Virus record (IMG/VR): IMGVR_UViG_3300005977_000013
Span: 1-28,207 of that record
Strand: one strand, 5' to 3'
DNA: 28,207 bases
Source of the DNA: a virus
The notes beneath the pieces were generated by a model, which was not told where the DNA came from, made no database searches, and saw only the letters and a program-made list of their open reading frames with translations. How positions within the stretch are numbered: position 1 is the stretch's first letter; every line of letters begins with the position of its first letter. A program made the position numbers and the translations under genes. Positions 5,195-26,307 of this stretch are shown here, one piece after another.

Positions 5195-5221
5195 TTTTCC
5201 TAGTGAAAGATCAATGACGAC

Positions 5222-5244
5222 AATAAATATTCATCATATTTATT
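5222..5244. promoter_or_regulatory. Second palindrome upstream of the coat protein gene
   Basis: AATAAATAT and ATATTTATT form perfect 9-bp arms around a 5-nt spacer, centred 64 bp before the coat protein ATG. Sequence differs from the CATAAT-ATTATG core, but the position matches the proximal site seen at the other late genes. A TATTTAAAATAT TATA-like stretch follows near 5257-5268. Confidence 0.45.
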
Positions 5245-5296
5245 ATAAGACGTGAATATTTAAAATATCAAATTGTGCAGATTAAATTGACCAAAA

Positions 5297-5701
5297 ATGG
5301 CAAAAGGTCACACACCAAGATCCTATTCGCAAAGATATGCTAAGTGGAATGCAAAATTCGCCTCATTTTCAAATCCTACCGTGGCATCTACCATATTGTC
5401 TAATGTTGCACCAATTGCACAACAAAATTTCCAAACTCATTCTCCAAAGTTCACTGCAGTAAATGAACAAGTATCAGCAGTTTTAACTCAATATGGAATA
5501 ACTGGGCCTAACAGGGCAATATATCAAGGCTTTGGTCTCAAAATTGCTAGAGCTCTAAATAGGATGGGTTCCGGGCCGGCATTAGCAAATATGATTAACG
5601 GATTGAAAGCTTATTATATTTCTGCGTTCAATGCTAATCCTACAGTTCTTGACGCAGTAACTAACATAATTACTGGATCGCCGACTGGATATGTAAGCTG
5701 A
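5297..5701 (+). CDS. Rudivirus major coat protein (134 aa)
   Basis: A 134-residue protein starting MAKGHTPRSYSQRYAKWNAK and ending GSPTGYVS. Blocks such as FSNPTVASTIL, VNEQVSAVLTQYGITGP and AIYQGFGLKIARALNR are those of the SIRV major coat protein, which is also 134 residues. Dimers of this helical protein wrap the linear dsDNA, held in A-form in SIRV2, to build the rod-shaped virion. There is no Shine-Dalgarno; the message is probably nearly leaderless. Two upstream palindromes and a downstream T-tract frame it as a single strong late unit. G+C content is visibly higher than in the surrounding small genes. Confidence 0.97.
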   Translation: MAKGHTPRSYSQRYAKWNAKFASFSNPTVASTILSNVAPIAQQNFQTHSPKFTAVNEQVSAVLTQYGITGPNRAIYQGFGLKIARALNRMGSGPALANMINGLKAYYISAFNANPTVLDAVTNIITGSPTGYVS

Positions 5702-5718
5702 TTAATTCGTTTAAGCTA

Positions 5719-5740
5719 TTTCTTTTTCTTTTTCTATTTT
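5719..5740 (+). terminator. T-rich terminator after the coat protein gene
   Basis: Runs of T interrupted by single C residues (TTTCTTTTTCTTTTTC-type) begin 17 bp after the coat protein stop, which is typical of archaeal oligo-T termination. It sits between converging genes. Confidence 0.6.
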
Positions 5741-5747
5741 GTAAATT

Positions 5748-5930
5748 CTATTCTTCATATTTTGTTTCTACATATTCTAAATTATTTGGATTTATTCGTT
5801 TTACATCTCTCATTTTTACGCCTTTGTGATACATTTTTATATGAGTTGCCATACTTTTTCTACTTTTTGAAATTGTATGACAAACTGGGCATTCGTATAA
5901 CATCAGACCCATGGAATTTTTTAATGTCAT
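5748..5930 (-). CDS. C2H2 zinc-finger protein (60 aa)
   Basis: A 60-residue protein with one classic finger: CPVC, 12 residues, then HIKMYH (C-x2-C-x12-H-x4-H, about residues 15-35), followed by a basic stretch KGVKMRDVKR. Small C2H2 proteins are common in crenarchaeal viruses and usually bind DNA. The called ATG overlaps a TTTTAAA-CGTCATG element, so translation may instead begin at residue 7 (MGLMLYECPVC, position 5912), just ahead of the finger. It converges on the coat protein gene and diverges from the glycosyltransferase gene only 18 bp away. Confidence 0.75.
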   Translation of the reverse strand: MTLKNSMGLMLYECPVCHTISKSRKSMATHIKMYHKGVKMRDVKRINPNNLEYVETKYEE

Positions 5931-5948
5931 GACGTTTAAAAGCTTAGT

Positions 5949-6956
5949 ATGAAAACCGTAATTTTGACAATGAACTATTCTTCAATTAGAAACATTAGTG
6001 ATGATATAGCTCAAGTCCTTAGAAAAAATGGTGAAATTGTCACAATTTCTACAAATCCGTATTTAATTCCACAATCAAATAAATTAATAATTTTCATGCC
6101 ATTTCATCCCCCATCTTTAAATCCCTACTTATATACTTTTAGAGAATTTAAAGGAAAGAAGTACTTTTATACTACTTGTGATGGTATACCTAATACAAAT
6201 ATTATAAATCAATATCTATTAGAAAATATAATATTTATACCAAATTCAAAGTTTACAGCTCAGAATTTACAAGAAGTTGGCTTAAATGTTGATCTTCCAG
6301 TTTTTCACGGTGTCAATTTTGAAGTTATTCAAAAAGCTGAACAATTATCTCAGCAATTAAAGCAGAAATTGGACAAAGATTTTCCTAGTTCCATAAAATT
6401 TGGCATAGTTTCAGGTCTAACGAAAAGGAAGAACATGGATCTAATGCTTAAGGTCTTTCAGGAGATAAATACTAAAATTCCAGAATTGGCCAAAAAAGTT
6501 CACTTTTTCGTTATTTCTCACAAAGATTTTAAGAATTATGAAGTTCCGCAAAATGTGCATTTTGTTAGTGAATTTGGACTAAATCCTAGAGAATACATTT
6601 TCGCTTTTTATAAAACTATGGATTTTGTTATTGTCCCATCTGGAACGGAAGGTTTCGGAATGCCTGTCTTGGAAAGCATGGCCATGGGAACTCCTGTAAT
6701 TCATCAACTTATGCCCCCGTTTGACGAATTTACAAGTTGGCAATGGAATTTATTGATTAAATCTAGTGAAGTTGAAGAATATTATGACAAAACTCATGGT
6801 CAAAAATGGAAAATTCATAAATTTGATGTTCAAGATATGATAAATGCAATTATGATAGCAAGTGAACTTCAAGATAGAGATGAAAGAAGTAAAAACTTGA
6901 AAGAATTGGCTAAAAGATACGATATTGAAAATTTATATACTAGATTTTTAGAATGA
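5949..6956 (+). CDS. GT-B (GT4-type) glycosyltransferase (335 aa)
   Basis: A 335-residue retaining-type glycosyltransferase. The C-terminal Rossmann half shows SGLTKRKNMDLMLKVF (155-170) and the sugar-nucleotide binding E-x7-E region EGFGMPVLESMAMGTPVI (234-251). The N-terminal half (IIFMPFHPP, CDGIPNTN, FHGVNF) would bind the acceptor. No membrane segment, so it is cytoplasmic. It follows the coat protein region and is one of three glycosyltransferases in this window; glycosylating virion proteins or host envelope are the plausible roles. A TTTAAAAGC TATA box lies immediately upstream, so the transcript is leaderless or nearly so. Confidence 0.85.
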   Translation: MKTVILTMNYSSIRNISDDIAQVLRKNGEIVTISTNPYLIPQSNKLIIFMPFHPPSLNPYLYTFREFKGKKYFYTTCDGIPNTNIINQYLLENIIFIPNSKFTAQNLQEVGLNVDLPVFHGVNFEVIQKAEQLSQQLKQKLDKDFPSSIKFGIVSGLTKRKNMDLMLKVFQEINTKIPELAKKVHFFVISHKDFKNYEVPQNVHFVSEFGLNPREYIFAFYKTMDFVIVPSGTEGFGMPVLESMAMGTPVIHQLMPPFDEFTSWQWNLLIKSSEVEEYYDKTHGQKWKIHKFDVQDMINAIMIASELQDRDERSKNLKELAKRYDIENLYTRFLE

Positions 6957-6969
6957 TTTATATTTGTCA
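6957..6969 (+). promoter_or_regulatory. Promoter of the 69- and 85-residue gene pair
   Basis: TTTATATT followed by TGTCA (6965-6969), 36 nt before the ATG at 7005. Confidence 0.5.
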
Positions 6970-7004
6970 TTTTTTATAATCTTGCATCAAGTGGTGAAGA
7001 TTAT

Positions 7005-7214
7005 ATGAGTTTAAAAGTCGAAAGAAAAGAAGATAAAGTTTATATTACTTATAAAAATCCAGATAATGAATTTGAGCCTATTATGATAACAGAAGAAGTT
7101 AGTATTAAAAAATTTGAAGAATGTGTTCAAAAAGAAAGAAAAAGAGGGACTGAAGATCCAGAATTAAATACAATAATAGGATTTGTACTTTTTGGTGAGA
7201 ATATTGAATGTTGA
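7005..7214 (+). CDS. Small charged hypothetical protein (69 aa)
   Basis: Not recognised. A 69-residue, Glu/Lys-rich protein (MSLKVERKEDKVYITYKNPD...) that begins with what looks like beta strands and then a helix (SIKKFEECVQKERKRG). A GGTGAAG-type Shine-Dalgarno lies at 6993-6998, 6 nt before the ATG. Its 3' end overlaps the next gene by 11 bp and carries that gene's Shine-Dalgarno. Confidence 0.6.
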   Translation: MSLKVERKEDKVYITYKNPDNEFEPIMITEEVSIKKFEECVQKERKRGTEDPELNTIIGFVLFGENIEC

Positions 7215-7461
7215 GCCTAGATTAATTGAAATGAAAAATGGAATAAACATTCAATATTTTTGTTTTATATGTAATACAATGTTAGTAGAGATTGAAAACA
7301 ATACAGTTAAACGTTTTCAGTCATGTGAACATTTTCATACTGAAAGAATATCAAAAGGTTTCTTTTCGTCACCAACTATTAAAAATTCAAAATTTAAAGC
7401 TAAATTTATTGAGAAAGATAAAAATTATTACTATTTAATTGTTCCAAATGTTAAGGACTAA
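7204..7461 (+). CDS. Cys/His-containing small protein (85 aa), TTG start
   Basis: Not recognised by family. The protein contains CFICN and, 24 residues on, SCEHFH, which would make a C-x2-C...C-x2-H metal site. I choose the TTG at 7204 because GGTGA at 7194-7198 is placed 5 nt before it; the same frame stays open upstream to 7183, and an ATG at 7231 is a shorter alternative. It overlaps the 69-residue gene by 11 bp and should be translationally coupled to it. The C-terminus (YYYLIVPNVKD) looks like a closing beta strand. Confidence 0.6.
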   Translation: MNVEPRLIEMKNGINIQYFCFICNTMLVEIENNTVKRFQSCEHFHTERISKGFFSSPTIKNSKFKAKFIEKDKNYYYLIVPNVKD

Positions 7462-7471
7462 TAAATCGAAA

Positions 7472-7488
7472 AATATATGTATGTCATA
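7472..7488 (+). promoter_or_regulatory. Promoter of the zinc-finger operon
   Basis: AAATATATGTA followed by TGTCATA (7482-7488), 23 nt before the ATG at 7512. Confidence 0.6.
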
Positions 7489-7511
7489 ATATATATAATG
7501 GTTGTGAGATC

Positions 7512-7640
7512 ATGGATAAGGTAATAATTGAGTGTGAAAATATGGCCAGATTTCACGTTGATAAAAATGATAAAACTATGCAAAAAGATATAATTAAAAT
7601 GTGCAAAGACTTTGGCGTTTCATATAAGGTGATTGAATAA
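7512..7640 (+). CDS. Small hypothetical protein (42 aa)
   Basis: Not recognised. A 42-codon gene, MDKVIIECENMARFHVDKND..., with a strand-helix pattern and two cysteines. A GTGAG Shine-Dalgarno lies at 7504-7508 and a TGTCATA promoter 24 nt upstream. It is followed with no gap by the zinc-finger gene (TAAATG junction), whose GGTGAT Shine-Dalgarno lies inside its last codons. This arrangement makes it a convincing real gene despite its size. Confidence 0.65.
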   Translation: MDKVIIECENMARFHVDKNDKTMQKDIIKMCKDFGVSYKVIE

Positions 7641-7940
7641 ATGTCAAAACATTATTATTGTTTTTTATGCAAAACGGAAATATTTAGCAGAAGAGATTTT
7701 AAGAATCATGCAGTAAAACATTTTAAAAACGACAGGTGCCCGTATTGTAATATGAAAATTAAAAATTTAAGGATTCATCTAACATTTTATCATATTCAGG
7801 AAAAAAAGAGATTAGTATATTACAGAGATTTAGCGATATTATGTAAAGAGGCTAATGATTTAAACATTTTGAAAGATCCAAATTTAAAACTGAATAAATA
7901 TCAGAGATATAACGTAATGAAAATTATTAATAAGTTATAA
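7641..7940 (+). CDS. Double C2H2-like zinc-finger protein (99 aa)
   Basis: A 99-residue protein with two putative fingers. The first is CFLCKTEIF...HAVKHF (C-x2-C-x12-H-x4-H, about residues 7-28). The second is a compact CPYCNMKIKNLRIHLTFYH (C-x2-C-x9-H-x4-H, about 34-52). A basic alpha-helical C-terminus follows (KLNKYQRYNVMKIINKL). It probably binds nucleic acid and may regulate viral or host transcription. It is the second gene of a two-gene unit, with GGTGAT 7 nt before its ATG. It is distinct from the 60-residue finger protein at 5748-5930. Confidence 0.75.
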   Translation: MSKHYYCFLCKTEIFSRRDFKNHAVKHFKNDRCPYCNMKIKNLRIHLTFYHIQEKKRLVYYRDLAILCKEANDLNILKDPNLKLNKYQRYNVMKIINKL

Positions 7941-7980
7941 TTCTTTTTTTGAATGATATTTCTTTTTTCGAATGCTTTTT
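7941..7980 (+). terminator. Repeated T-tract terminator
   Basis: Three T-runs (TTCTTTTTTT, TTCTTTTTTC, GCTTTTT) follow directly on the zinc-finger gene stop and end just before the next promoter element. Confidence 0.5.
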
Positions 7981-7983
7981 ATT

Positions 7984-7990
7984 TGTCATA
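7984..7990 (+). promoter_or_regulatory. TGTCATA element next to the start of the 73-residue gene
   Basis: TGTCATA ends only 4 nt before the ATG at 7995, with a GCTTTTTAT TATA-like stretch in front. The message would be leaderless. Confidence 0.45.
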
Positions 7991-7994
7991 GTAC

Positions 7995-8216
7995 ATGACT
8001 GATTGTGAACTCAAGATGGTAAATACTGTAGACCTAATAAAAATAAAAATATTGGCAAAATGGATATCTAACATAATGGATGAAATTCCGGACAATAAAG
8101 AATTAAGCGATCATGACATAATAGAAATGTTAATGATTATTCAAGGTGCAATAAATGAAATTGACAAAACAATTACAATAATCATTAGACAAAGTACAAC
8201 TTCACAAAAAAGTTAA
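7995..8216 (+). CDS. Helical hypothetical protein (73 aa)
   Basis: Not recognised. A 73-residue protein that looks almost entirely helical, with amphipathic segments VDLIKIKILAKWISNIMDE and SDHDIIEMLMIIQGAINEID. It has no cysteine-based or membrane signature. It is a single-gene unit that stops right next to the convergent 73-residue membrane/coiled-coil gene. The TGTCATA element lies almost on the ATG. Confidence 0.55.
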   Translation: MTDCELKMVNTVDLIKIKILAKWISNIMDEIPDNKELSDHDIIEMLMIIQGAINEIDKTITIIIRQSTTSQKS

Positions 8217-8438
8217 TTATTCTAATTTCTTTTTTATATCTTCAATTTGCTTTTTTAGATCATTCTGACTTATTTTCAACTCTTCGATTTGAAGTTTCAA
8301 ATTATTTAATTCTGAATTTACAATTTCTTTAACCGCCTCTTTCAATGCATTCTTAATTTTAAGATAAAGTTGAACAATTGCGAATAATGTAGTTACGAAT
8401 GTAGAAATAATTGTTAAAATAAGTGATATCTCAGTCAT
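8217..8438 (-). CDS. Membrane-anchored coiled-coil protein (73 aa)
   Basis: Not recognised by family. One N-terminal hydrophobic helix (about residues 4-27, ISLILTIISTFVTTLFAIVQLYL) is followed by about 45 residues with clear heptad character (LNNLKLQIEELKISQNDLKKQ and onward). This layout of short anchor plus rod-like coiled coil is holin-like or spacer-like in outline, but no specific role can be assigned. Its start overlaps the end of the upstream 122-residue gene by 8 bp, so the two are co-expressed. Confidence 0.65.
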   Translation of the reverse strand: MTEISLILTIISTFVTTLFAIVQLYLKIKNALKEAVKEIVNSELNNLKLQIEELKISQNDLKKQIEDIKKKLE

Positions 8439-8799
8439 CCTTTAACTCCCCCAGTTCTTCTTCTAAATTATCCAAATTTGTATTTTCATCATTTTTGAAT
8501 TTCTGGTAAACGGAATCAACTTGTTTCGCATAAGGCTGAGGGTATACGACTCGAAAGTCTCCAATATCTATTTGATTGGTTTTCGGATCTTTTGTTATTA
8601 GAAATTGAAAATAAAAAGTAAATCCAGGAATATATAAATCTACAATCATTGGAAATTCCAAATTTTTCAAAACTATAATCGAATTTGACAAATATTTAGA
8701 AAGTCCATAAATTTGTCCTCTATTTTCTAATTCTCTAACTTTATCTATTGCAATTCTTATAGGCCCAAAAATATTTTGAAAAGGGTCTTGTGTAAGCAT
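8431..8799 (-). CDS. Conserved-looking rudivirus hypothetical protein (122 aa)
   Basis: No domain recognised. The 122-residue protein has a helical N-terminus (FGPIRIAIDKVRELENRGQ), a beta-rich middle (FPMIVDLYIPGFTFYFQFLITKD) and an acidic C-terminal tail (NLDNLEEELGELKDD). Its position downstream of the P488-type structural gene, and behind one of the late-type palindromes centred 61 bp before its ATG, suggests it belongs to the virion or assembly set. It overlaps the downstream membrane/coiled-coil gene by 8 bp. Confidence 0.65.
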   Translation of the reverse strand: MLTQDPFQNIFGPIRIAIDKVRELENRGQIYGLSKYLSNSIIVLKNLEFPMIVDLYIPGFTFYFQFLITKDPKTNQIDIGDFRVVYPQPYAKQVDSVYQKFKNDENTNLDNLEEELGELKDD

Positions 8800-8842
8800 A
8801 TTAAAATTTTCTCAATTAGAAGATAAAAAGCTCTCATGAAAC

Positions 8843-8874
8843 ACATGCTATATTCATAATATTACGAATATTCG
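8843..8874. promoter_or_regulatory. Palindromic operator-like site B
   Basis: TATTCATAATATTACGAATA (8851-8870) is a 20-bp palindrome with one mismatch, preceded by ACATGC. The centre is 61 bp upstream of the 122-residue gene start. It shares its core with sites at 5177 and 20137. Confidence 0.6.
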
Positions 8875-8881
8875 TTGAAGT

Positions 8882-8995
8882 TTATGTAGACAATATTTCT
8901 TCAATTTTCTTTTTTGTTAATTTTGGATGAACCAAAAATTTACCATTATAAGTATTCGGATCTCTATTCCATTCTTTTCTCTTTTTAACTATCAT
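8882..8995 (-). CDS. Small basic protein (37 aa)
   Basis: Not recognised. A 37-residue, strongly basic protein (MIVKKRKEWNRDPNTYNGKF...), with a short Lys-rich stretch near the C-terminus (LTKKKIEEILST). It begins 13 bp after the stop of the P488-type structural gene on the same strand and is probably in the same transcript. It could bind DNA or RNA, but it is too short to say more. Confidence 0.45.
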   Translation of the reverse strand: MIVKKRKEWNRDPNTYNGKFLVHPKLTKKKIEEILST

Positions 8996-9008
8996 ATTTA
9001 TCAACTTC

Positions 9009-10481
9009 TTATCTTTGAGCTATATTATTAAAGTTTTTGTAGTAGAAAATTGGCTTATATTGTTTTGTTTTTGCTGACTTTTGTGCTAACTTAAGCGAAT
9101 TTTCTACCTTTGCCTGTCCCTGTATTTTCTCACCGTATTCTTGAGCAAATTGAAGATCTGCACTTGATAGGCCGTAAAATGTCCATTTGTTTTTCCAATA
9201 ATTCAGAAAATCGGAATATGAAAGCGTTCTTTTTCCTGTCGAATAACTATAGTTTTGTTGATACGGATATCTGGCAATTTCCAAAATTGCACTTGCGACC
9301 ATTTTAGCATACCAAACGTTAGAATATTTCTTATTAACTAATTGTTGAACATGTAAGAATTGTTGATAAGTAACTGCATAATTTTCAATTTCTGAGCTAT
9401 AAGTAATATTTACTCCTCCCGGAGATGGATCATATAAATGTAATTTAAACAAATTGCCAAATATCGAAATTATAGTTTTATCAGCAGACAAGATAGAAAC
9501 TAAATCTAATTGTGTCACATTATTAGGATTAAATTCAGGTATTAAAATAGCAAAGTCAAGAGGCGTATAATCTAGAATCATTCCAAACACATCAGCAAAA
9601 TTTTGGAGAATCATTCCATTTTGTAATTGTACCTTATAAGTTGGACTTTCTTCAATTTCTGGAACTAAAACACACCTGTCTAACCATCCGACATCTAAAG
9701 CGAATCCGCTATTAATAATTTCGTTCAAGTTAGGAACAAATGAAACTAAGAATTTAGCTAAATCAGGAAGTTGATTATAGTTTATATTTAAAGCATTCAA
9801 GAGATCACTAATTCCAGTATTTTGAATATTTTGAATACTAAAATTATCAGAAACGGGAATACTAGTATTTCCAATTCCTAGAGTCGGAAGATCTATAGAG
9901 ATATTTGTAGTTGTTACTTGAGAGAAATATTTTTCTATTTTTCCACATGCCTCATTTCTATTGATAATTGTATTGGAAGGTTGAAAAACTGATAAATCAA
10001 AGTAAGTTTCATCAAAAACAGCAGGTTGATATAAAGTACAGCAAAGTTGAACATATTTATCATATAGTTTACTACTTTGTTGTATAAATTGAATTCCTGA
10101 TGTTTGTCCAAAAATTGGACTTTGTCCTAGTTGTAGAAAATTTTGCACATTTGTATTTGGATTTAATGTAGAAATTGCTAAATTATTCAGAGCCAAGAGC
10201 AAAGAAGAGATAATTGAGGCATAGGCAATTCCATAATTTGTATTTATACCTGGAGGAACTTGAACATTTTGTAATGGAGTTGGCAAAACTGAAGAAACGC
10301 CTGCATCAAACATTGTACTGAAAGCGGGAAATGAGTTTCTATTTAGAACTTTTTGATACAAATGATATTTCATTGAGGCGATTGACCTATTTCCTACTTT
10401 CTTACCCATATTTCTCATATAGAATATGAATTCTGAAAAGAAAAACTCACTAGATCCATTATGTATATATATGTCATACAT
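9009..10481 (-). CDS. Minor virion structural protein, P488-type (490 aa)
   Basis: A 490-residue protein of the size of SIRV2 P488, one of the three large minor virion proteins of rudiviruses. It is rich in Asn, Gln, Ser and aromatic residues, as fibre-type proteins are, with no transmembrane segment. Gene context (beside the GNAT and upstream of Hjc) agrees with the rudivirus order. The ATG at 10481 has an AGGAGAT Shine-Dalgarno, but its first 21 codons overlap the promoter of the divergent acetyltransferase gene. A start at residue 22 (MRNMGKKVGNRS, position 10418) is therefore a real alternative. Identity is by length, composition and synteny rather than a motif. Confidence 0.75.
   Translation of the reverse strand: MYDIYIHNGSSEFFFSEFIFYMRNMGKKVGNRSIASMKYHLYQKVLNRNSFPAFSTMFDAGVSSVLPTPLQNVQVPPGINTNYGIAYASIISSLLLALNNLAISTLNPNTNVQNFLQLGQSPIFGQTSGIQFIQQSSKLYDKYVQLCCTLYQPAVFDETYFDLSVFQPSNTIINRNEACGKIEKYFSQVTTTNISIDLPTLGIGNTSIPVSDNFSIQNIQNTGISDLLNALNINYNQLPDLAKFLVSFVPNLNEIINSGFALDVGWLDRCVLVPEIEESPTYKVQLQNGMILQNFADVFGMILDYTPLDFAILIPEFNPNNVTQLDLVSILSADKTIISIFGNLFKLHLYDPSPGGVNITYSSEIENYAVTYQQFLHVQQLVNKKYSNVWYAKMVASAILEIARYPYQQNYSYSTGKRTLSYSDFLNYWKNKWTFYGLSSADLQFAQEYGEKIQGQAKVENSLKLAQKSAKTKQYKPIFYYKNFNNIAQR
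10462..10478 (+). promoter_or_regulatory. Promoter of the acetyltransferase gene
   Basis: TGTATATATA followed by TGTCATA (10472-10478), 17 nt before the ATG at 10496. It lies inside the first codons of the divergent P488-type gene as called. Confidence 0.6.
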
Positions 10482-10495
10482 TGATCTCCTAATAG

Positions 10496-10957
10496 ATGAA
10501 AATGGAATTTATGTTACAAGAGGCAATTGATCATAATATGATAAAATTTGTTAGATCGTTAATTGATTATTATCACGGTCAGGGAATGCCTCATGGGGGC
10601 GGTGCGGGAAAAAACTCAAGATATTTTATGTATTTAGCGAAGGAAGAATTACAAAATTTTATAGTTGCTGTGGCATGGTTACACGATAATACACCTTTTC
10701 GCTTTGTTGCTCAACAATATAGAATTCCTTCAGATAGATCATATTTTATAAGAAGAGTGACAAAAACTGCACCGGGCGATTATTTAGTTAAGTTTCTAGT
10801 TGATTTAAGTGAGAAATTGAAAAATGATGGACTTGAGGTATTATGGACTTTAGGAATGCCTGAGCATTCAAATTCTTTGTACAAGAAATCAGGATTTCAA
10901 GAAGTAGGAAGAACAAATAGAACTGGTCATCCAGTTTTTGTTAAATGGTTAAAATGA
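10496..10957 (+). CDS. GNAT-family N-acetyltransferase (153 aa)
   Basis: A 153-residue protein with the GCN5-related acetyltransferase outline: N-terminal helices, central strands (YFMYLAKEELQNFIVAVAWLH) and a C-terminal segment NSLYKKSGFQEVGRTNRTGH, the usual 'Y-x-x-x-GF-x-x-x-G' end of the fold. The typical acetyl-CoA pyrophosphate loop is not obvious, although MPHGGGAGKNSR (31-42) is an unusual Gly-rich loop. Acetyltransferases at this position are known in rudiviruses; the substrate is unknown. The last bases overlap the next gene (ATGA). Confidence 0.75.
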   Translation: MKMEFMLQEAIDHNMIKFVRSLIDYYHGQGMPHGGGAGKNSRYFMYLAKEELQNFIVAVAWLHDNTPFRFVAQQYRIPSDRSYFIRRVTKTAPGDYLVKFLVDLSEKLKNDGLEVLWTLGMPEHSNSLYKKSGFQEVGRTNRTGHPVFVKWLK

Positions 10958-17455: not shown

Positions 17456-18778
17456 ATGTCCGCAGTAACTGTCGCAACAACTTCATTTCCCTGTCAGTCA
17501 GTTTATCAAATTGCTAATCTATTATCTCCCCCAACTAAATATTCATTAATTTCCTCTTCTTTATGGAACGAAATTGTTCAAGATTTATATCTAACTTACA
17601 GTGTTTTTAAATATATTAACTATTTATCTCAATATCCATATCCAGAATATATACAGCCTGCAATTGATGAATTTCTTAATTTTCCTTATCAATTTACGCC
17701 TTATCAATTTACGTCTCTATTGATTGCACAAAAAGGAATTCCTCTCACCACAGATGAATTTAATAAACTCATTGATGCAATTATAGAATTAGCTAACGAA
17801 TTTGATATTAATCTAAAAACACAACTAAGTCATGTTCAACATGATCAAATTGTCAAATCTTCACAATTTTCAAACGTAATTTATGCAATAAATCAATTAT
17901 TAACCTTCAACTTTAATACTTACTTTCTTTTAAGTTGCTCAGGCTATGAATTTAGTAATTTATTAAGTAAACAAAATACATTTTTGAATGTGTTAATTGG
18001 AATTTTAAATACAGCAATAACTATCTCAGATAACACTTATGTTAAAAATTTACTTATATACAATTCGAATCGTTCTATAAATATTTATGGTTCTATCGGC
18101 ACAATAGTAATGGAAACAAACAATGGCGGAATATTTTTATACAATTACGGTTCAGTTGAAACGATTAATATAAATCAAGAAAAAAAAGGAATTTTTTTGA
18201 ACGATAATTCTTATATTAATTCTATTAATATAGGAACAGACAATGGCGGAATATTTTTAGATAATTACACATATATAAACTCAGTAAAAATAGGAACGGA
18301 AAGTATTGGCGTTTATTTAGATAATTATTCTGTAGTATACACATTAAATATAGGGACTGATAGTGGTGGAATATATTTAGAGAATTACACATATATAAAC
18401 TCAGTAAATATAGGAACAGAAGGTTTTGGCGTTTTTTTAGATAATTATTCTGTACTATACACATTAAATATAGGAACTGATAATGGAGGAGTATATTTAG
18501 ATAATTACACATCAGTCAATACAATAACTATACAAACTGAAAATGCAGGAGTATATTTGAATAATAATGCATATGTAAACACCCTATATGTAGAAAATAA
18601 TATTCGTGGAGTATATTTGAATAATGATACATATATAAATACTCTATATGTAGAAAATAATGTTGGCGGAATATATTTAAATGATAATGCAGTAATAGAA
18701 AATTTAATTTGCAAACAAAATTCTGGAGGAGTATATGTTTCTGGAAATGCAAAAATCATAAATAATCAGTGCATCTAA
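17456..18778 (+). CDS. Beta-helix fibre-like protein with 20-residue repeats (440 aa)
   Basis: A 440-residue protein in two parts. Residues 1-220 are mostly helical, with a WNEIVQDLY motif near residue 37 that resembles the N-termini of the 558- and 269-residue proteins. Residues 224-440 are eleven tandem units of 20 residues, consensus GG(I/V)YLDNYTYINTLNIGTDN, which predicts a stacked right-handed beta-helix like those in viral tailspikes. It is very rich in Asn and has a single Cys near its C-terminus. It lies 7 bp downstream of the P564-type gene, so it is likely a virion or receptor-binding component. No enzyme residues can be recognised. Confidence 0.75.
   Translation: MSAVTVATTSFPCQSVYQIANLLSPPTKYSLISSSLWNEIVQDLYLTYSVFKYINYLSQYPYPEYIQPAIDEFLNFPYQFTPYQFTSLLIAQKGIPLTTDEFNKLIDAIIELANEFDINLKTQLSHVQHDQIVKSSQFSNVIYAINQLLTFNFNTYFLLSCSGYEFSNLLSKQNTFLNVLIGILNTAITISDNTYVKNLLIYNSNRSINIYGSIGTIVMETNNGGIFLYNYGSVETININQEKKGIFLNDNSYINSINIGTDNGGIFLDNYTYINSVKIGTESIGVYLDNYSVVYTLNIGTDSGGIYLENYTYINSVNIGTEGFGVFLDNYSVLYTLNIGTDNGGVYLDNYTSVNTITIQTENAGVYLNNNAYVNTLYVENNIRGVYLNNDTYINTLYVENNVGGIYLNDNAVIENLICKQNSGGVYVSGNAKIINNQCI
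18125..18775 (+). repeat. 60-bp tandem coding repeats, partly as 120-bp pairs
   Basis: Eleven consecutive 60-bp units (the last partial) encode the 20-residue repeats. In 18240-18480 alternate units match best (units starting GGAATATTT/GGAATATAT and those starting GGCGTTT), giving a 120-bp higher-order period with near-identical DNA. This shows recent duplication of a two-unit block. Antisense frames stay open through the repeat as a by-product. Confidence 0.85.
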
Positions 18779-22328: not shown

Positions 22329-23519
22329 ATGGAATTCCAAAGAAACACTTCAGGAATTATAAAAAGTTTTAATTCTCTAGATATTTTTTCAATAAATCTT
22401 TTATATATGGGAATTTTAAGCGGTATAAGCTATCCTCTTTTTGTCTCAAGTCTTCTAAAATCTGTAAACTTGTTATTTGCAATTTCGATAGGTGCAATTT
22501 TTGAAATTCCGCTTTTAGTAATGTATTACATACTAACTAAGAAAATTCCATTAAACGGGGGCGATTATGCTTATATTCGTTCTTCATTTTCGCCAAAATT
22601 CTATACAATCTTTGGAATTTCACTCTGGCTAATTTACGTATTTTCAGCACCGGTATTAGCTGACTTAGTACTCCTAAATTTCAATATTCCAATAATTGAT
22701 AAGTTTTTAATTTCAGAAATGCTATTTGCTATTGCTTTACTTAGTATAGTCAGAAAATCAATTTATGGATATTTAGTAGACGGATTAGCAATTTTACAAA
22801 TAATTGTTTCTGTAATTCTACCAATTTCAAGTTTTCATTTTCAAGTCGAAAATTTCACATTATCAAATACTTTACTTTCAGCTTTGCTATTTGATTTATC
22901 TATGTTTTTATTTCTAAATGCAATTAGTTACATAGCAGGAGAAACGAAAAATGTGAATAAAAATATGAAAATTGGTTATTTCATAAGCTATTTAGTAGTT
23001 ACCATATTAGCGATATTAGATAGTTATTCAAATCTAAACATATTATTTATGTTAATGCCGATATGGTTCATGAGTTATATTTTTGTAACTACATTAATCC
23101 AAAGCCGATTAGTTCAAAATCTTGCATTTGATAAAATCTTACCTGAGAAATTTGCAAAAATATCGCCAAATGCCTTACTATTGATCTTTATCGGTGATAC
23201 TATTACAAATATTCTAGAAAATTTGTTAAACTTTTCAATTTCATTTGGATTTGACGGCTTATTATTTATTTTCTGGAATTTCATAATTGTTAGTTTTGCA
23301 TTTCTCAAATTAACCAATAGCAAATTGATATTTTCTACTGTATTAATTAGCTTAGCTTTACAAATTTTCCTATTTTTCTATCTAGGCATGCAAAATCAAG
23401 TATTTTATAACTTTGTGATTGAAGGAAACGCAATATATATAATACTAAGGATATTAATAATGCCAATTATAGGAGGAATTATTTACTTATTGAGGAGAAA
23501 AGTGATAAATGTTGAATAA
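22329..23519 (+). CDS. APC-superfamily membrane permease (396 aa)
   Basis: A polytopic membrane protein with about 11-12 hydrophobic helices across 396 residues and a short basic C-terminus (LLRRKVINVE). The segment SGISYPLFVS (31-40) in the first helix and PLNGGDYAYIRSSFSP (74-89) are typical of amino acid/amine permeases of the APC superfamily. It would sit in the host cell membrane. A transporter gene is very unusual for a rudivirus. It is leaderless-type, with a GGTCATA promoter, and its stop is 2 bp before the transglycosylase gene, so the two are co-expressed. Substrate cannot be inferred. Confidence 0.75.
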   Translation: MEFQRNTSGIIKSFNSLDIFSINLLYMGILSGISYPLFVSSLLKSVNLLFAISIGAIFEIPLLVMYYILTKKIPLNGGDYAYIRSSFSPKFYTIFGISLWLIYVFSAPVLADLVLLNFNIPIIDKFLISEMLFAIALLSIVRKSIYGYLVDGLAILQIIVSVILPISSFHFQVENFTLSNTLLSALLFDLSMFLFLNAISYIAGETKNVNKNMKIGYFISYLVVTILAILDSYSNLNILFMLMPIWFMSYIFVTTLIQSRLVQNLAFDKILPEKFAKISPNALLLIFIGDTITNILENLLNFSISFGFDGLLFIFWNFIIVSFAFLKLTNSKLIFSTVLISLALQIFLFFYLGMQNQVFYNFVIEGNAIYIILRILIMPIIGGIIYLLRRKVINVE

Positions 23520-23521
23520 AA

Positions 23522-24427
23522 ATGAAATTAATATTCGGATTAAGTTCAAGATCAACTTATCTATTAAAAACTAATTTTCCAGTTCTAATTAACCAATTGA
23601 AATTTAGAAAAAAAGAATGGAAAAATGAGACATGGGTAGATAGTGGGGGCTATCAAATTGCATTACACGGTTTAGAAATTTCTGTAAAAGATATCTTGAA
23701 GAAGTACAAAAAGATAGATGCATATGCGTTTTTTTCTCTTGATATTGCTAGTGTTTTTTCTCCTTTGGACAAACGAAATTTTGAATATTTCGAATATTTG
23801 TACACAAAAATGGAATGGTTAGAAAAAATTATACCAGTGATACACATTTATCCAATTCAAGATGTAGATGAGGCAATTGATTTTTATAAGCAATATACTT
23901 ATTATTTTTCAATTGGTGGACTTGTGGCATCTAGTAAAATGAAAGTTCTAATTTATACATTTCCATGGGTTTATTACTTAAGAAAAAAAGTTCCATATCT
24001 TCACGTTCTTGGAATGCCGGCACCGTATTTTCTCCAAACGTTCAATTTCGCTAATAGCATGGACACAGCGACTTATAGTAAAATAACTGGATTTAGAGAT
24101 ATATTTTGGTTTGATGGATCTAGAAGATATGTCGGAAATATGGAAACGAAAAGAAAAAGATATAAAATCACAAAAGAAGAAAAAGAACAATTGTTTAAAT
24201 TCCTAGATAAACATAATTTTCCTTTTGAATATGACTTGAAAAATAGAAAAATTATAGAACTTATAAATGCTTACATTTTATTCTATAATAATTGGAGAAT
24301 AAAGAATAAATATACAGAATATTCAGAAAAACTTAGAAAAATGGGTCTAGATAGTTTAGTAAACGAATTAATTAGAAATTATAAATTTGCAAGTCAAATA
24401 TTAAAACAAAAAAGAGAAAAATTATAG
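23522..24427 (+). CDS. TGT-superfamily transglycosylase, DpdA-like (301 aa)
   Basis: A 301-residue homologue of queuine/archaeosine tRNA-ribosyltransferases. It has DSGGYQ (40-45; DSGGFQ in the family), SLDIAS (72-77), IGGLVAS (131-137) and LGMPAPYFLQ followed by SMDTATY, whose Asp181 is in the place of the catalytic nucleophile. It has no cysteine at all, so the C-x-C-x2-C zinc site of tRNA enzymes is missing, as are the C-terminal and PUA domains of archaeal TGT (usually over 500 residues). The S-x-D-(S/T) pattern and size are closer to DpdA, which inserts 7-deazaguanines into DNA. A role in modifying viral DNA is inferred; host tRNA remains possible. Confidence 0.75.
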   Translation: MKLIFGLSSRSTYLLKTNFPVLINQLKFRKKEWKNETWVDSGGYQIALHGLEISVKDILKKYKKIDAYAFFSLDIASVFSPLDKRNFEYFEYLYTKMEWLEKIIPVIHIYPIQDVDEAIDFYKQYTYYFSIGGLVASSKMKVLIYTFPWVYYLRKKVPYLHVLGMPAPYFLQTFNFANSMDTATYSKITGFRDIFWFDGSRRYVGNMETKRKRYKITKEEKEQLFKFLDKHNFPFEYDLKNRKIIELINAYILFYNNWRIKNKYTEYSEKLRKMGLDSLVNELIRNYKFASQILKQKREKL

Positions 24428-24488
24428 ATAAAAAATACAATAGTTAATAATTTGTACCGATTTTCAACAATTTAAAATCTTAATTCAA

Positions 24489-24539
24489 ATAAGCTATCCA
24501 CTTTTTGTCTCCGAAATAATGAAAAATATAAACTTATAA
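24489..24539 (+). pseudogene. Remnant of a second APC permease gene
   Basis: In one frame this stretch reads ISYPLFVSEIMKNINL then stop, against ISYPLFVSSLLKSVNL in the intact permease (residues 33-48). At DNA level 22 of the first 23 bases (24489-24511) match the permease gene at 22424-22446, including ATAAGCTATCC and CTTTTTGTCTC; the rest has diverged mostly in ways that keep similar residues. No start codon or further coding homology flanks it. It lies between the transglycosylase and the DndC-like gene and now overlaps the latter's promoter region. Confidence 0.6.
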
Positions 24540-24577
24540 AAGAAAAATTAAAAAGTCAAAAATAAACCATACTTCAT

Positions 24578-25792
24578 ATGTCTCTTAGATTATCTGAAGA
24601 TCCTAAAGTTCATGAAACATTCAATGTATTCGATAGTCTGAAGGACAGGAAAAACTATGTCATAGCGTTTTCAGGCGGAAAAGATTCGACAACACTTTCT
24701 ATTCTTTTCTATGAATGGTTAATTTCCAGAAATCAAAAGGGAAAACGTGTATTTTTTGTCCATAATGACACCGAGTCGGAATATGATGTTCTAGAGGATT
24801 ACGCAATCAATTTCCTTCATGAGATCTGTGAAAAGATCAATGAATCGGGTAATGTATGTATAAATTACATTACAAAACCTAAAGGAAACTTTTACTGGAA
24901 ATCCATATTTTTGGGATATGTGGCGCCCACAACTAGTTTTCGTTGGTGTATTTATGATCTGAAAGTCTCACCAAATAAAAGAAGTTTAAAAAATTTAATT
25001 AAAAAATATGGTGACTTAGTATTATTCACTGGTCATAGGGAAAATGAATCGATAGCAAGAAAAGTAACAATGAAAAAGTATTCATGTGGATTAGATTCTA
25101 TGGACTGTGCAAGTGCTTTTTATCTCAATGTTTCAATGAAAAATGTAATTAAAGTAGCACCAATAAGAAAATGGGATCTTGAAGACGTTTGGAAATTTTT
25201 AAGATCAAAAAGAGGAGAATTCAACATAGATACATTATTTGATGTGATGTATAAGAACACCAATTCTAGATGGGGATGTTGGCATTGTACTTTAGTAAAA
25301 GTACAGAAGAGTGTATATAACTTAGACGAAAAATATTTTCCTCTAGAGGCTTTAAGAATACTTTATAGAATAATATCAGATCTCGAAAGATTCAGATTAC
25401 GAAAAGATTGGGGATACTCGAAATTAGGCGCCCTATCGCCAAAGGGAAGAGCAATACTCATGTATGGAACAAAAGTTATAGAAAATATAGGAATTAAATT
25501 GTATGGATTAGACTTCAAATTAGAAGGAACTCATAACTTAAGAGAAATCATGTTTGAGTTAGATGAGGACATAGCAGACAGGGAAGTCATGACCATAGCT
25601 AAGGAATTGAAGTCAAGGACTAGTCGTATCGTTCCAGTAGGAGTCCTCAGAGGACAAAGAATGACCAAAGCAGATGAAGAAGTGATAGTTAGCATGGCGG
25701 AAAACAATATTGCCCTCAATGTCTTGAGAATCCATTCTAATAGGGATCACTTCAGGGATCTTATCCACAATATTAGAAATGAAATGAGATAA
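24578..25792 (+). CDS. PAPS-reductase/DndC-like PP-loop enzyme (404 aa)
   Basis: The PP-loop SGGKDST (32-38) marks an ATP pyrophosphatase of the PAPS reductase family. Two further blocks point to the DndC branch, which works in DNA phosphorothioation: FRWCIYDLKVSPNKR (121-135) and SRWGCWHCTLVKVQKS (230-245). Cys124, Cys234 and Cys237 are candidate Fe-S ligands, with Cys170 or Cys177 as a possible fourth. VHNDTESEYDVLE (61-73) fits the second strand. The last 100 residues are an extra domain I cannot name. G+C at 25561-25680 is 54 of 120 bases, far above the neighbours, which hints at recent acquisition. No DndD, DndE or DndA partner is in the window. Confidence 0.75.
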   Translation: MSLRLSEDPKVHETFNVFDSLKDRKNYVIAFSGGKDSTTLSILFYEWLISRNQKGKRVFFVHNDTESEYDVLEDYAINFLHEICEKINESGNVCINYITKPKGNFYWKSIFLGYVAPTTSFRWCIYDLKVSPNKRSLKNLIKKYGDLVLFTGHRENESIARKVTMKKYSCGLDSMDCASAFYLNVSMKNVIKVAPIRKWDLEDVWKFLRSKRGEFNIDTLFDVMYKNTNSRWGCWHCTLVKVQKSVYNLDEKYFPLEALRILYRIISDLERFRLRKDWGYSKLGALSPKGRAILMYGTKVIENIGIKLYGLDFKLEGTHNLREIMFELDEDIADREVMTIAKELKSRTSRIVPVGVLRGQRMTKADEEVIVSMAENNIALNVLRIHSNRDHFRDLIHNIRNEMR

Positions 25793-25798
25793 AAAAGA

Positions 25799-26056
25799 TT
25801 AACTTGTTTTCTTATATTGTTCTATCAAACTGATCATTTTTTTAAGAAAAACCTCAAAATTATAACTTATATAGGGATATTTACTTGCACTTTGTAAATC
25901 CTTGTAAAAATTGTCCAATTCCTCTTGTTTTAGAACCTTTGCAAACGACAACAAATAATGATGAAAAAACTCATCAGCACCTGTAGTCGGATAAATATCT
26001 AAGAGTTCTTCTATTATTTCTTCTTTTAACTTCTTAAAGTCCATCTTTAAGTTCAT
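25799..26056 (-). CDS. Helical hypothetical protein (85 aa)
   Basis: Not recognised. An 85-residue helical protein (MNLKMDFKKLKEEIIEELLD...). I place the start at 26056, because GGTGAG (complement of 26064-26069) lies 7 nt upstream; the longer frame to 26074 would need a TTG. That Shine-Dalgarno contains the stop codon of the HTH gene, so the two are translationally coupled. This gene converges with the DndC-like gene, 6 bp apart. Confidence 0.65.
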   Translation of the reverse strand: MNLKMDFKKLKEEIIEELLDIYPTTGADEFFHHYLLSFAKVLKQEELDNFYKDLQSASKYPYISYNFEVFLKKMISLIEQYKKTS

Positions 26057-26064
26057 TTTTAGAC

Positions 26065-26307
26065 TCACCAACAATCATTTATCATATTTCTTACTTTTCT
26101 CTCCGAAATATTTAATATTTGGGCTATTTGGCTTACTGTGAAGCCTTGACTGATTAATTGATGAACTATGGTTATTTCATCCTCTTTATCTTGTATATAA
26201 TATCTTGAACCGTTTACGTTTATCGTTTTCATTTCTGTATCACTAACATCTATCTTGTCGCCGGCCCTTAATAAAGTTTTCTCTAAACTTTTACCTTTAT
26301 AGTCCAC
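26065..26307 (-). CDS. Helix-turn-helix DNA-binding protein (80 aa)
   Basis: An 80-residue protein whose C-terminal 35 residues (IVHQLISQGFTVSQIAQILN, then ISERKVRNMI) form a clear HTH of the resolvase/sigma-like type: 'x-G-(F/Y)-(S/T)-x-x-(E/Q)-I-A-x-x-L-x-(I/V)-S-x-x-x-V'. It is a probable viral transcription regulator. The start as called is GTG at 26307, close behind a CTTTTATAAG TATA box; an internal ATG at residue 26 (26232) has a GTGAT Shine-Dalgarno and would leave a 55-residue protein of just the HTH. Upstream of the 85-residue gene and coupled to it. Confidence 0.75.
   Translation of the reverse strand: MDYKGKSLEKTLLRAGDKIDVSDTEMKTINVNGSRYYIQDKEDEITIVHQLISQGFTVSQIAQILNISERKVRNMINDCW

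What the first reader, a model, noticed from the sequence alone, without database searches (positions are those of the whole stretch)
22329..25792. Permease / DpdA-like transglycosylase / DndC-like cassette: possible viral nucleic acid modification system
Three genes on one strand that are not part of the usual rudivirus core sit together: an APC permease, a 301-residue TGT-superfamily enzyme without the zinc site or PUA domain of tRNA enzymes, and a PP-loop enzyme with DndC-type blocks (FRWC..., RWGCWHC). DpdA puts 7-deazaguanines into DNA, and DndC helps replace a phosphate oxygen by sulfur. Having both kinds side by side in a virus suggests protection of viral DNA against host nucleases or CRISPR effectors, with the host supplying preQ0 from its archaeosine pathway and a sulfur donor. 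What is seen: the motifs and the gene order. What is inferred: the joint function and DNA as target.
Basis: partly seen in the sequence, partly recalled or inferred. Interest (0 to 1): 0.88.

Follow-up and report, generated by a model that had tools for sequence, protein, structure and literature searches.

The report
Rudivirus gene captured from host defence
A virus of hot-spring archaea carries one gene of an apparently undescribed archaeal modification-and-restriction defence system (the sulfur-type DNA-marking enzyme, without its nuclease and helicase), probably so that the host takes viral DNA for its own.

Summary
The three genes and their motifs are real and exactly placed, but the cassette splits in two. 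(1) Permease and TGT-like gene are ordinary for this virus group: present in SIRV1-11, SBRV1 and SRV, and Ligamenvirales were already counted among predicted DpdA/7-deazaguanine viruses (Hutinet 2019). The TGT-like protein shares a profile family with phage 9g DpdA and has a TGT fold but no cysteine and no PUA domain. (2) The 404-residue DndC-like gene is the new part. No catalogued rudivirus has it; besides the window, one independent IMG/VR contig carries it at the same place (95% identical, dN/dS about 0.1). It fills a variable slot where SIRV2/SIRV3 keep anti-CRISPR genes. Its closest relatives are not bacterial DndC or phage 'PAPS reductases' but chromosomal genes of Thermoproteota, next to a Cas4-like nuclease and an SF1 helicase. 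In seven further genomes found by the DndC-like gene alone, the helicase was adjacent in 6 and the nuclease in 5. Relatives of this pair also sit with methyltransferases in Hma-like restriction loci. Best reading: the virus captured the modification half of a host restriction system as camouflage. Sulfur chemistry and DNA target are inferred; a joint TGT+DndC pathway is not supported.

The parts
22329..23519 (+). APC-type permease (396 aa), common in rudiviruses; not specifically tied to the other two genes
   Evidence: phrog_8289 1.9e-193; in SIRV1-11, SBRV1, SRV, SSRV1, ARV2
23522..24427 (+). DpdA-like (TGT-superfamily) transglycosylase, 301 aa; conserved D40-SGG-Q, SLD74, GG132-133, H161, D181-T182; no Cys, no PUA
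   Evidence: phrog_887 as phage 9g DpdA; AF2 model pLDDT 85.8, best PDB match archaeosine TGT 1iq8; alignment
24428..24577 (+). Intergenic spacer with a TATA-like AAACTTATAAAAG, nearly identical in the second virus; possible own promoter of the DndC-like gene
   Evidence: sequence comparison with L004; promoter function inferred
24578..25792 (+). DndC-like PP-loop enzyme, 404 aa, captured from a host nuclease-helicase system; SGGKDST loop (32-38), C124, C170, C177, C234, C237
   Evidence: purifying selection dN/dS 0.09-0.12
25799..26074 (-). Small ORF (91 aa) directly downstream, opposite strand, also present after the DndC-like gene in L004; function unknown
   Evidence: no convincing family hit

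Best explanation
The DndC-like gene is the modification component of a chromosomal three-gene restriction-modification-like system of Thermoproteota (DndC-like enzyme + Cas4-like PD-(D/E)XK nuclease + SF1 helicase), captured without the destructive nuclease and helicase. The viral enzyme most likely puts the host-type, sulfur-based mark (probably on the DNA backbone, using sulfur from a host cysteine desulfurase) on viral DNA, so that hosts with the system treat it as self. The neighbouring DpdA-like gene is an older, separate, predicted 7-deazaguanine DNA-modification gene common to the group. Shown here: gene integrity, purifying selection, the origin of the gene, the conserved chromosomal context and the variable viral slot. 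Inferred: that the chromosomal system is defensive, that the mark is on DNA, that it is sulfur, and that it protects the virus.
For: Full-length relatives (44-47% over about 390 aa) in two ~3-Mb genomes of the host order, and 36-37% in two others. All four sit beside the same helicase and nuclease, and a nuclease search of 214 genomes gives close matches in exactly those four. Out-of-sample test: seven more Thermoproteota genomes found with the DndC-like profile alone had the helicase adjacent in 6 and the nuclease in 5; ten other DndC-like loci had 0 nuclease and 1 weak helicase match. Tree: the viral genes fall inside this clade (100/99 with the two host-order copies), apart from phage and bacterial DndC. 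The nuclease keeps H...PD...ExK and Cas4-like cysteines. Relatives of the nuclease-helicase pair lie beside HmaB/HmaC-like methylase and ATPase, so the module pairs with different modification enzymes. Slot: AcrID1 in SIRV2/SIRV3, other genes elsewhere. Two viruses carry it under purifying selection.
Against: No chemistry is shown. The three-gene system has no experimental record that I found. It lacks DndD/E, which the Dnd literature treats as the DNA-scanning core, so how the enzyme would find DNA sites is unknown. The DndC-specific cysteine dyad is missing. The AF2 model is poor beyond the PP-loop core (mean pLDDT 64.6) and structurally also resembles tRNA thiolases. Only two viral contigs carry the gene. 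It is not shown that the virus's own hosts have the system.
Confidence: 0.52

Rival explanations
1. Joint pathway: DpdA-like and DndC-like enzymes act together on viral DNA, for example base exchange plus backbone or base thiolation, with the permease importing a precursor.
For: Neighbouring genes on one strand. In genome G115 the only DpdA-family gene found in 214 genomes of the host order lies next to a DndC-like remnant and NurA/HerA genes.
Against: Dozens of viruses have the TGT-like gene without the DndC-like gene. The chromosomal relatives of the DndC-like gene have nuclease and helicase, not DpdA, as neighbours. The spacer, GC and tree indicate separate arrival.
Confidence: 0.12
2. Decoy: the viral protein does not modify DNA but competes with the host DndC-like subunit or blocks the host nuclease-helicase, a dominant-negative inhibitor.
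For: Captured single component of a multi-protein system; its slot holds anti-CRISPR genes in other rudiviruses.
Against: All PP-loop and cysteine motifs are kept under purifying selection, which suggests catalysis rather than binding alone.
Confidence: 0.12
3. Thiolation of host or viral tRNA, or another small-molecule sulfur transfer, by a PP-loop enzyme (NcsA/TtuA/TilS-like).
For: Foldseek best hits are TilS, NcsA and TtuA.
Against: Low-confidence model; sequence profiles point to DndC, with no curated tRNA thiolase family over its cut-off; chromosomal context is nuclease plus helicase.
Confidence: 0.08
4. Auxiliary metabolic gene for sulfate assimilation (PAPS/APS reductase).
For: Pfam PAPS_reduct 2.3e-13.
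Against: No ECGxH redox motif; TIGR02057/cysH scores far below cut-off; SBRV1 has a clearly different CysH-type gene.
Confidence: 0.03

Closest known systems
DndC of the DndABCDE phosphorothioation system
   Same: SGGKDS PP-loop, FRWC and G-C-W-x-C blocks, i.e. the three cysteines said to hold the Fe-S cluster; PADLOC DndC 3e-37
   Different: No DndB/D/E partner, DndC cysteine dyad absent and another pair (C170/C177) instead, shorter and different C-terminal part, 120 bits against the DndC cut-off of 290
Hma / DUF499-centred BREX-related systems
   Same: Archaeal members here carry a related nuclease-helicase pair next to the modification genes
   Different: Modification by DUF1156 N6-methyltransferase and a DUF499 ATPase; the DndC-type system has neither as core, and its helicase is AAA_11/SF1-like, whereas published BR helicases are Swi2/Snf2 SF2
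DpdA of phage 9g (7-deazaguanine in DNA)
   Same: Same PHROG family (phrog_887), TGT fold, nucleophile Asp
   Different: Only about 17% identity in the aligned half; virus lacks preQ0 synthesis genes; no Pfam PF23859 hit; rudiviral DNA not tested
Phage 'PAPS reductase' (phrog_424/2302)
   Same: Same five cysteine positions (C124, C170, C177, C234, C237); viral genes without a full dnd set
   Different: Separate clade in the tree; beside cytosine methyltransferases in the two phage loci read
BREX type 4 BrxP / SspD
   Same: PP-loop sulfur enzyme paired with restriction proteins
   Different: Weak match only (2.5e-12, 3.8e-9); no PglZ, BrxC or DUF4007 recognised nearby in the loci read

Membership tests
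DndC / Dnd phosphorothioation system | PP-loop SGGKDS | tested here: met
   invariant in alignment
DndC / Dnd phosphorothioation system | three cysteines for an Fe-S cluster | tested here: met
   C124, C234, C237 aligned with Salmonella DndC; cluster itself not testable
DndC / Dnd phosphorothioation system | DndC-specific cysteine dyad (Rakesh 2024) | tested here: not met
   cysteines around ECP...SCG of Salmonella DndC have no counterpart; C170/C177 lie elsewhere; that these are the published dyad is my reading
DndC / Dnd phosphorothioation system | equivalog cut-off of TIGR03183 (290 bits) | tested here: not met
   120 bits
DndC / Dnd phosphorothioation system | DndD/DndE partners | tested here: not met
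   none in window; no DndD over cut-off in the four genomes with the chromosomal copies
DndC / Dnd phosphorothioation system | phosphorothioate in DNA | not testable with these tools
   needs mass spectrometry
DpdA (DNA transglycosylase) | TGT fold with active-site aspartates | tested here: met
   Foldseek archaeosine TGT 1.4e-8; D40, D74, D181 invariant
DpdA (DNA transglycosylase) | profile family of an experimentally linked DpdA | tested here: met
   phrog_887 matched by 9g DpdA 2e-98 and by the viral protein 1e-64; tRNA TGTs match no PHROG
DpdA (DNA transglycosylase) | Pfam PF23859 (DpdA) | tested here: not met
   no Pfam hit at E<=1
DpdA (DNA transglycosylase) | 7-deazaguanine in virion DNA | not testable with these tools
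   not measured for rudiviruses in the papers found
tRNA TGT / TgtA | zinc site CxCxxC...H | tested here: not met
   no cysteine in 301 aa; host TgtA has CxCxxC
PAPS/APS reductase (CysH) | ECGxH redox motif and cut-off score | tested here: not met
   motif absent; TIGR00434/TIGR02057 far below cut-off
Chromosomal DndC-like + nuclease + helicase system | DndC-like component of the same clade | tested here: met
   100/99 support
Chromosomal DndC-like + nuclease + helicase system | nuclease and helicase beside it | tested here: not met
   absent from window and L004: the virus has one component only

The most novel reading that the evidence does not exclude
Thermoproteota have an undescribed sulfur-based restriction-modification system that needs only a DndC-like enzyme for marking and a Cas4-like nuclease plus SF1 helicase for attack. 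A rudivirus has stolen the marking enzyme and, with its DpdA-like protein, carries DNA modified twice (7-deazaguanine bases and sulfur in the backbone).
Probability: 0.2. Interest if true: 0.88.

Novelty: new variant of a known kind. Interest (0 to 1): 0.62.

Why it matters
Phages that carry orphan DNA methyltransferases against host restriction are well known. A captured DndC-type enzyme in an archaeal virus would be a sulfur-based counterpart, and I found none reported. The context also points to a minimal, DndD/E-free modification-restriction unit in Thermoproteota that is in none of the defence or family libraries searched. Cultivable Sulfolobus rudiviruses make both parts testable.

Tried and rejected
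A genome-contig scan with the viral DndC-like protein alone found nothing, and PDB sequence searches gave nothing useful; profile searches of whole genomes were needed. hhalign of the rudiviral TGT set against small DpdA and TgtA sets did not separate them (93 against 91.5% probability); the PHROG result and the missing zinc site decide for DpdA. The deeper IMG/VR scan with the DndC-like profile returned only distant phage relatives (22-35%); those put into the tree fall in another clade. I considered and rejected PAPS reductase, a Dnd system, BREX type 4, an assembly artefact, and the permease as a necessary partner. AcrID1 homologs were sought in the window and not found. The first tree placed the virus with the G196 copy (94/89), the second as sister to G196+G188; only membership of the clade is claimed, and the host-to-virus direction is inferred from the syntenic chromosomal outgroups.

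Full report
What is there. The window is a 28,207-base IMG/VR virus record, about 80% identical to Yellowstone Usarudivirus genomes SIRV4-11. The motifs it names are present.

Two of the three genes are ordinary. tblastn finds the permease in SIRV1-11, SBRV1, SRV, SSRV1 and ARV2, and the TGT-like protein in SIRV1-11, SBRV1, SRV, STSV1/2 and STSV4. They are adjacent in the SIRVs, face each other in SRV and lie 5 kb apart in SBRV1; each also occurs without the other. Hutinet et al. 2019 (PMC6884629) already counted 12 Ligamenvirales and 2 Bicaudaviridae among viruses with DpdA or 7-deazaguanine pathway genes.

The TGT-like protein. It matches phrog_887 over its length (1e-64). DpdA of phage 9g, whose DNA carries deoxyarchaeosine (PMC5567051, abstract), matches the same family at 2e-98, while E. 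coli Tgt and a host-order tRNA TgtA match no PHROG. The AlphaFold2 model (pLDDT 85.8) finds archaeosine TGT 1iq8 as best PDB match. It has no cysteine, against the CxCxxC site of host TgtA. All six host-order genomes tested have their own tRNA TgtA, so a preQ0-type base is likely available (inference). DNA as substrate is not shown, Pfam's DpdA model does not match, and hhalign with small sets was undecided.

The DndC-like protein is the unusual one. PADLOC DndC matches residues 21-249 (3e-37), but the NCBIfam DndC equivalog score is 120 against a cut-off of 290. No rudivirus in the phage collection has it. In IMG/VR a second contig, L004, has it with the same neighbours; among 26 IMG/VR contigs with the TGT-like gene, only L004 carries it. 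Between the two viruses dN/dS is 0.09-0.12, like the TGT and permease. Its GC is 33.5% (third positions 29.6%) against 26.7% (19.9%) for the TGT-like gene, consistent with later arrival. The slot holds AcrID1 directly after the TGT in SIRV3 and a few genes on in SIRV2, and unrelated genes in other SIRVs. Bautista et al. 2017 (PMC5454432) place the variable SIRV genes at the genome ends and predict that they govern the arms race with the host.

Where it comes from. Searching 214 genomes of the host order gave four full-length relatives: 47% and 44% in two ~3-Mb genomes, 37% and 36% in two smaller ones. In all four the gene lies beside a ~520-540-aa helicase (AAA_11/AAA_12, SF1-like) and a ~645-690-aa PD-(D/E)XK nuclease with Cas4-like cysteines. 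A nuclease search over the same 214 genomes gave close matches (E below 1e-290) in exactly those four. As a test on new data, I searched 398 Thermoproteota genomes with the DndC-like profile only. Seven further relatives appeared; the helicase profile hit next to 6 and the nuclease profile next to 5. One exception (G298) is fused into a 1122-aa protein; another (G259) has an adjacent ORF the nuclease profile does not recognise. Ten other DndC-like loci served as controls: no nuclease hit, one weak helicase hit; some of these control contigs are short, which limits the control.

Tree. In two maximum-likelihood trees the viral sequences fall inside this clade with the two host-order copies (100/99), apart from bacterial DndC, phage PAPS-reductase-like proteins and other archaeal DndC-like genes. 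The chromosomal members surround the virus and share synteny, so transfer from host to virus is the simpler direction (inference).

What the chromosomal system is. Nine other genomes of the order carry distant relatives of the nuclease, with the helicase next to it in eight. Their neighbours include methyltransferases and a DUF499 ATPase; in the locus tested these match HmaB (3e-52) and HmaC (2e-68). The destructive pair thus combines with different modification enzymes, as in restriction-modification. Neither the three-gene set nor its nuclease has a specific model in PADLOC or NCBIfam. I found no description in the papers searched; that search is limited to open-access text, so 'undescribed' is provisional. 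BREX-related helicases in PMC12839542 are Swi2/Snf2 type, unlike these.

How it probably works. The enzyme keeps the PP-loop (ATP activation) and C124, C234 and C237, the three cysteines shared with DndC, plus C170/C177 shared with phage PAPS-reductase-like proteins. In the host it would mark self DNA, and the nuclease-helicase would attack unmarked DNA. In the virus the marking enzyme alone would protect viral DNA. Sulfur could come from host cysteine desulfurases, of which SufS-type relatives exist in all four genomes. DndD was not found over its cut-off in those genomes, so the conserved C-terminal part (about residues 250-400) is the candidate for DNA recognition. That is inference; the model there is of low confidence.

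Verdict. The finding is worth keeping, but for a different reason than given: not a three-gene modification cassette, but a captured modification gene of a chromosomal system, inserted beside an older DpdA-like gene.

Noticed in passing
L042 (genome G115) 5208-10500: The only DpdA-family (PF23859) gene found in 214 host-order genomes lies next to a frame-broken DndC-like gene, a NurA-like nuclease and a HerA ATPase: a second, chromosomal DpdA/DndC-like neighbourhood.
   Followed up: partly
L082-L090: Nine archaeal Hma-like loci carry a ~600-640-aa Cas4-like nuclease, in eight with a ~525-aa SF1 helicase beside it, near DNA methyltransferase and (in several) DUF499-like ATPase genes; this nuclease-helicase pair has no library model.
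   Followed up: partly
L217 2232-5600 (genome G298): A DndC-like domain of the same clade is fused behind about 730 residues of unknown function in a 1122-aa protein, without the nuclease-helicase pair.
   Followed up: no
L215 5961-6485, L216 7092-7661, L219 6520-7032; L038 10434-11858, L218 14448-15746, L219 13955-15538: Possible accessory genes of the DndC-like system: a ~175-aa SAM-methyltransferase-like protein and a P-loop ATPase with GSGKTYGxGY-type motifs recur in several loci (assigned by eye).
   Followed up: no
L043 and L052 (genomes G199, G109): Other archaeal DndC-like genes sit beside HerA-like and NurA-like genes (assigned by eye), suggesting several different nuclease partners for DndC-like enzymes.
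   Followed up: no
L054 607-1419 (SBRV1): Another rudivirus carries a different, CysH-type PAPS-reductase-like gene about 2 kb from its TGT-like gene.
   Followed up: partly
window 17456-18778: Protein with many degenerate GGIYL/DNY-type repeats that differs in repeat content from the copy in L004; possible beta-helical variable virion or receptor-binding protein.
   Followed up: no
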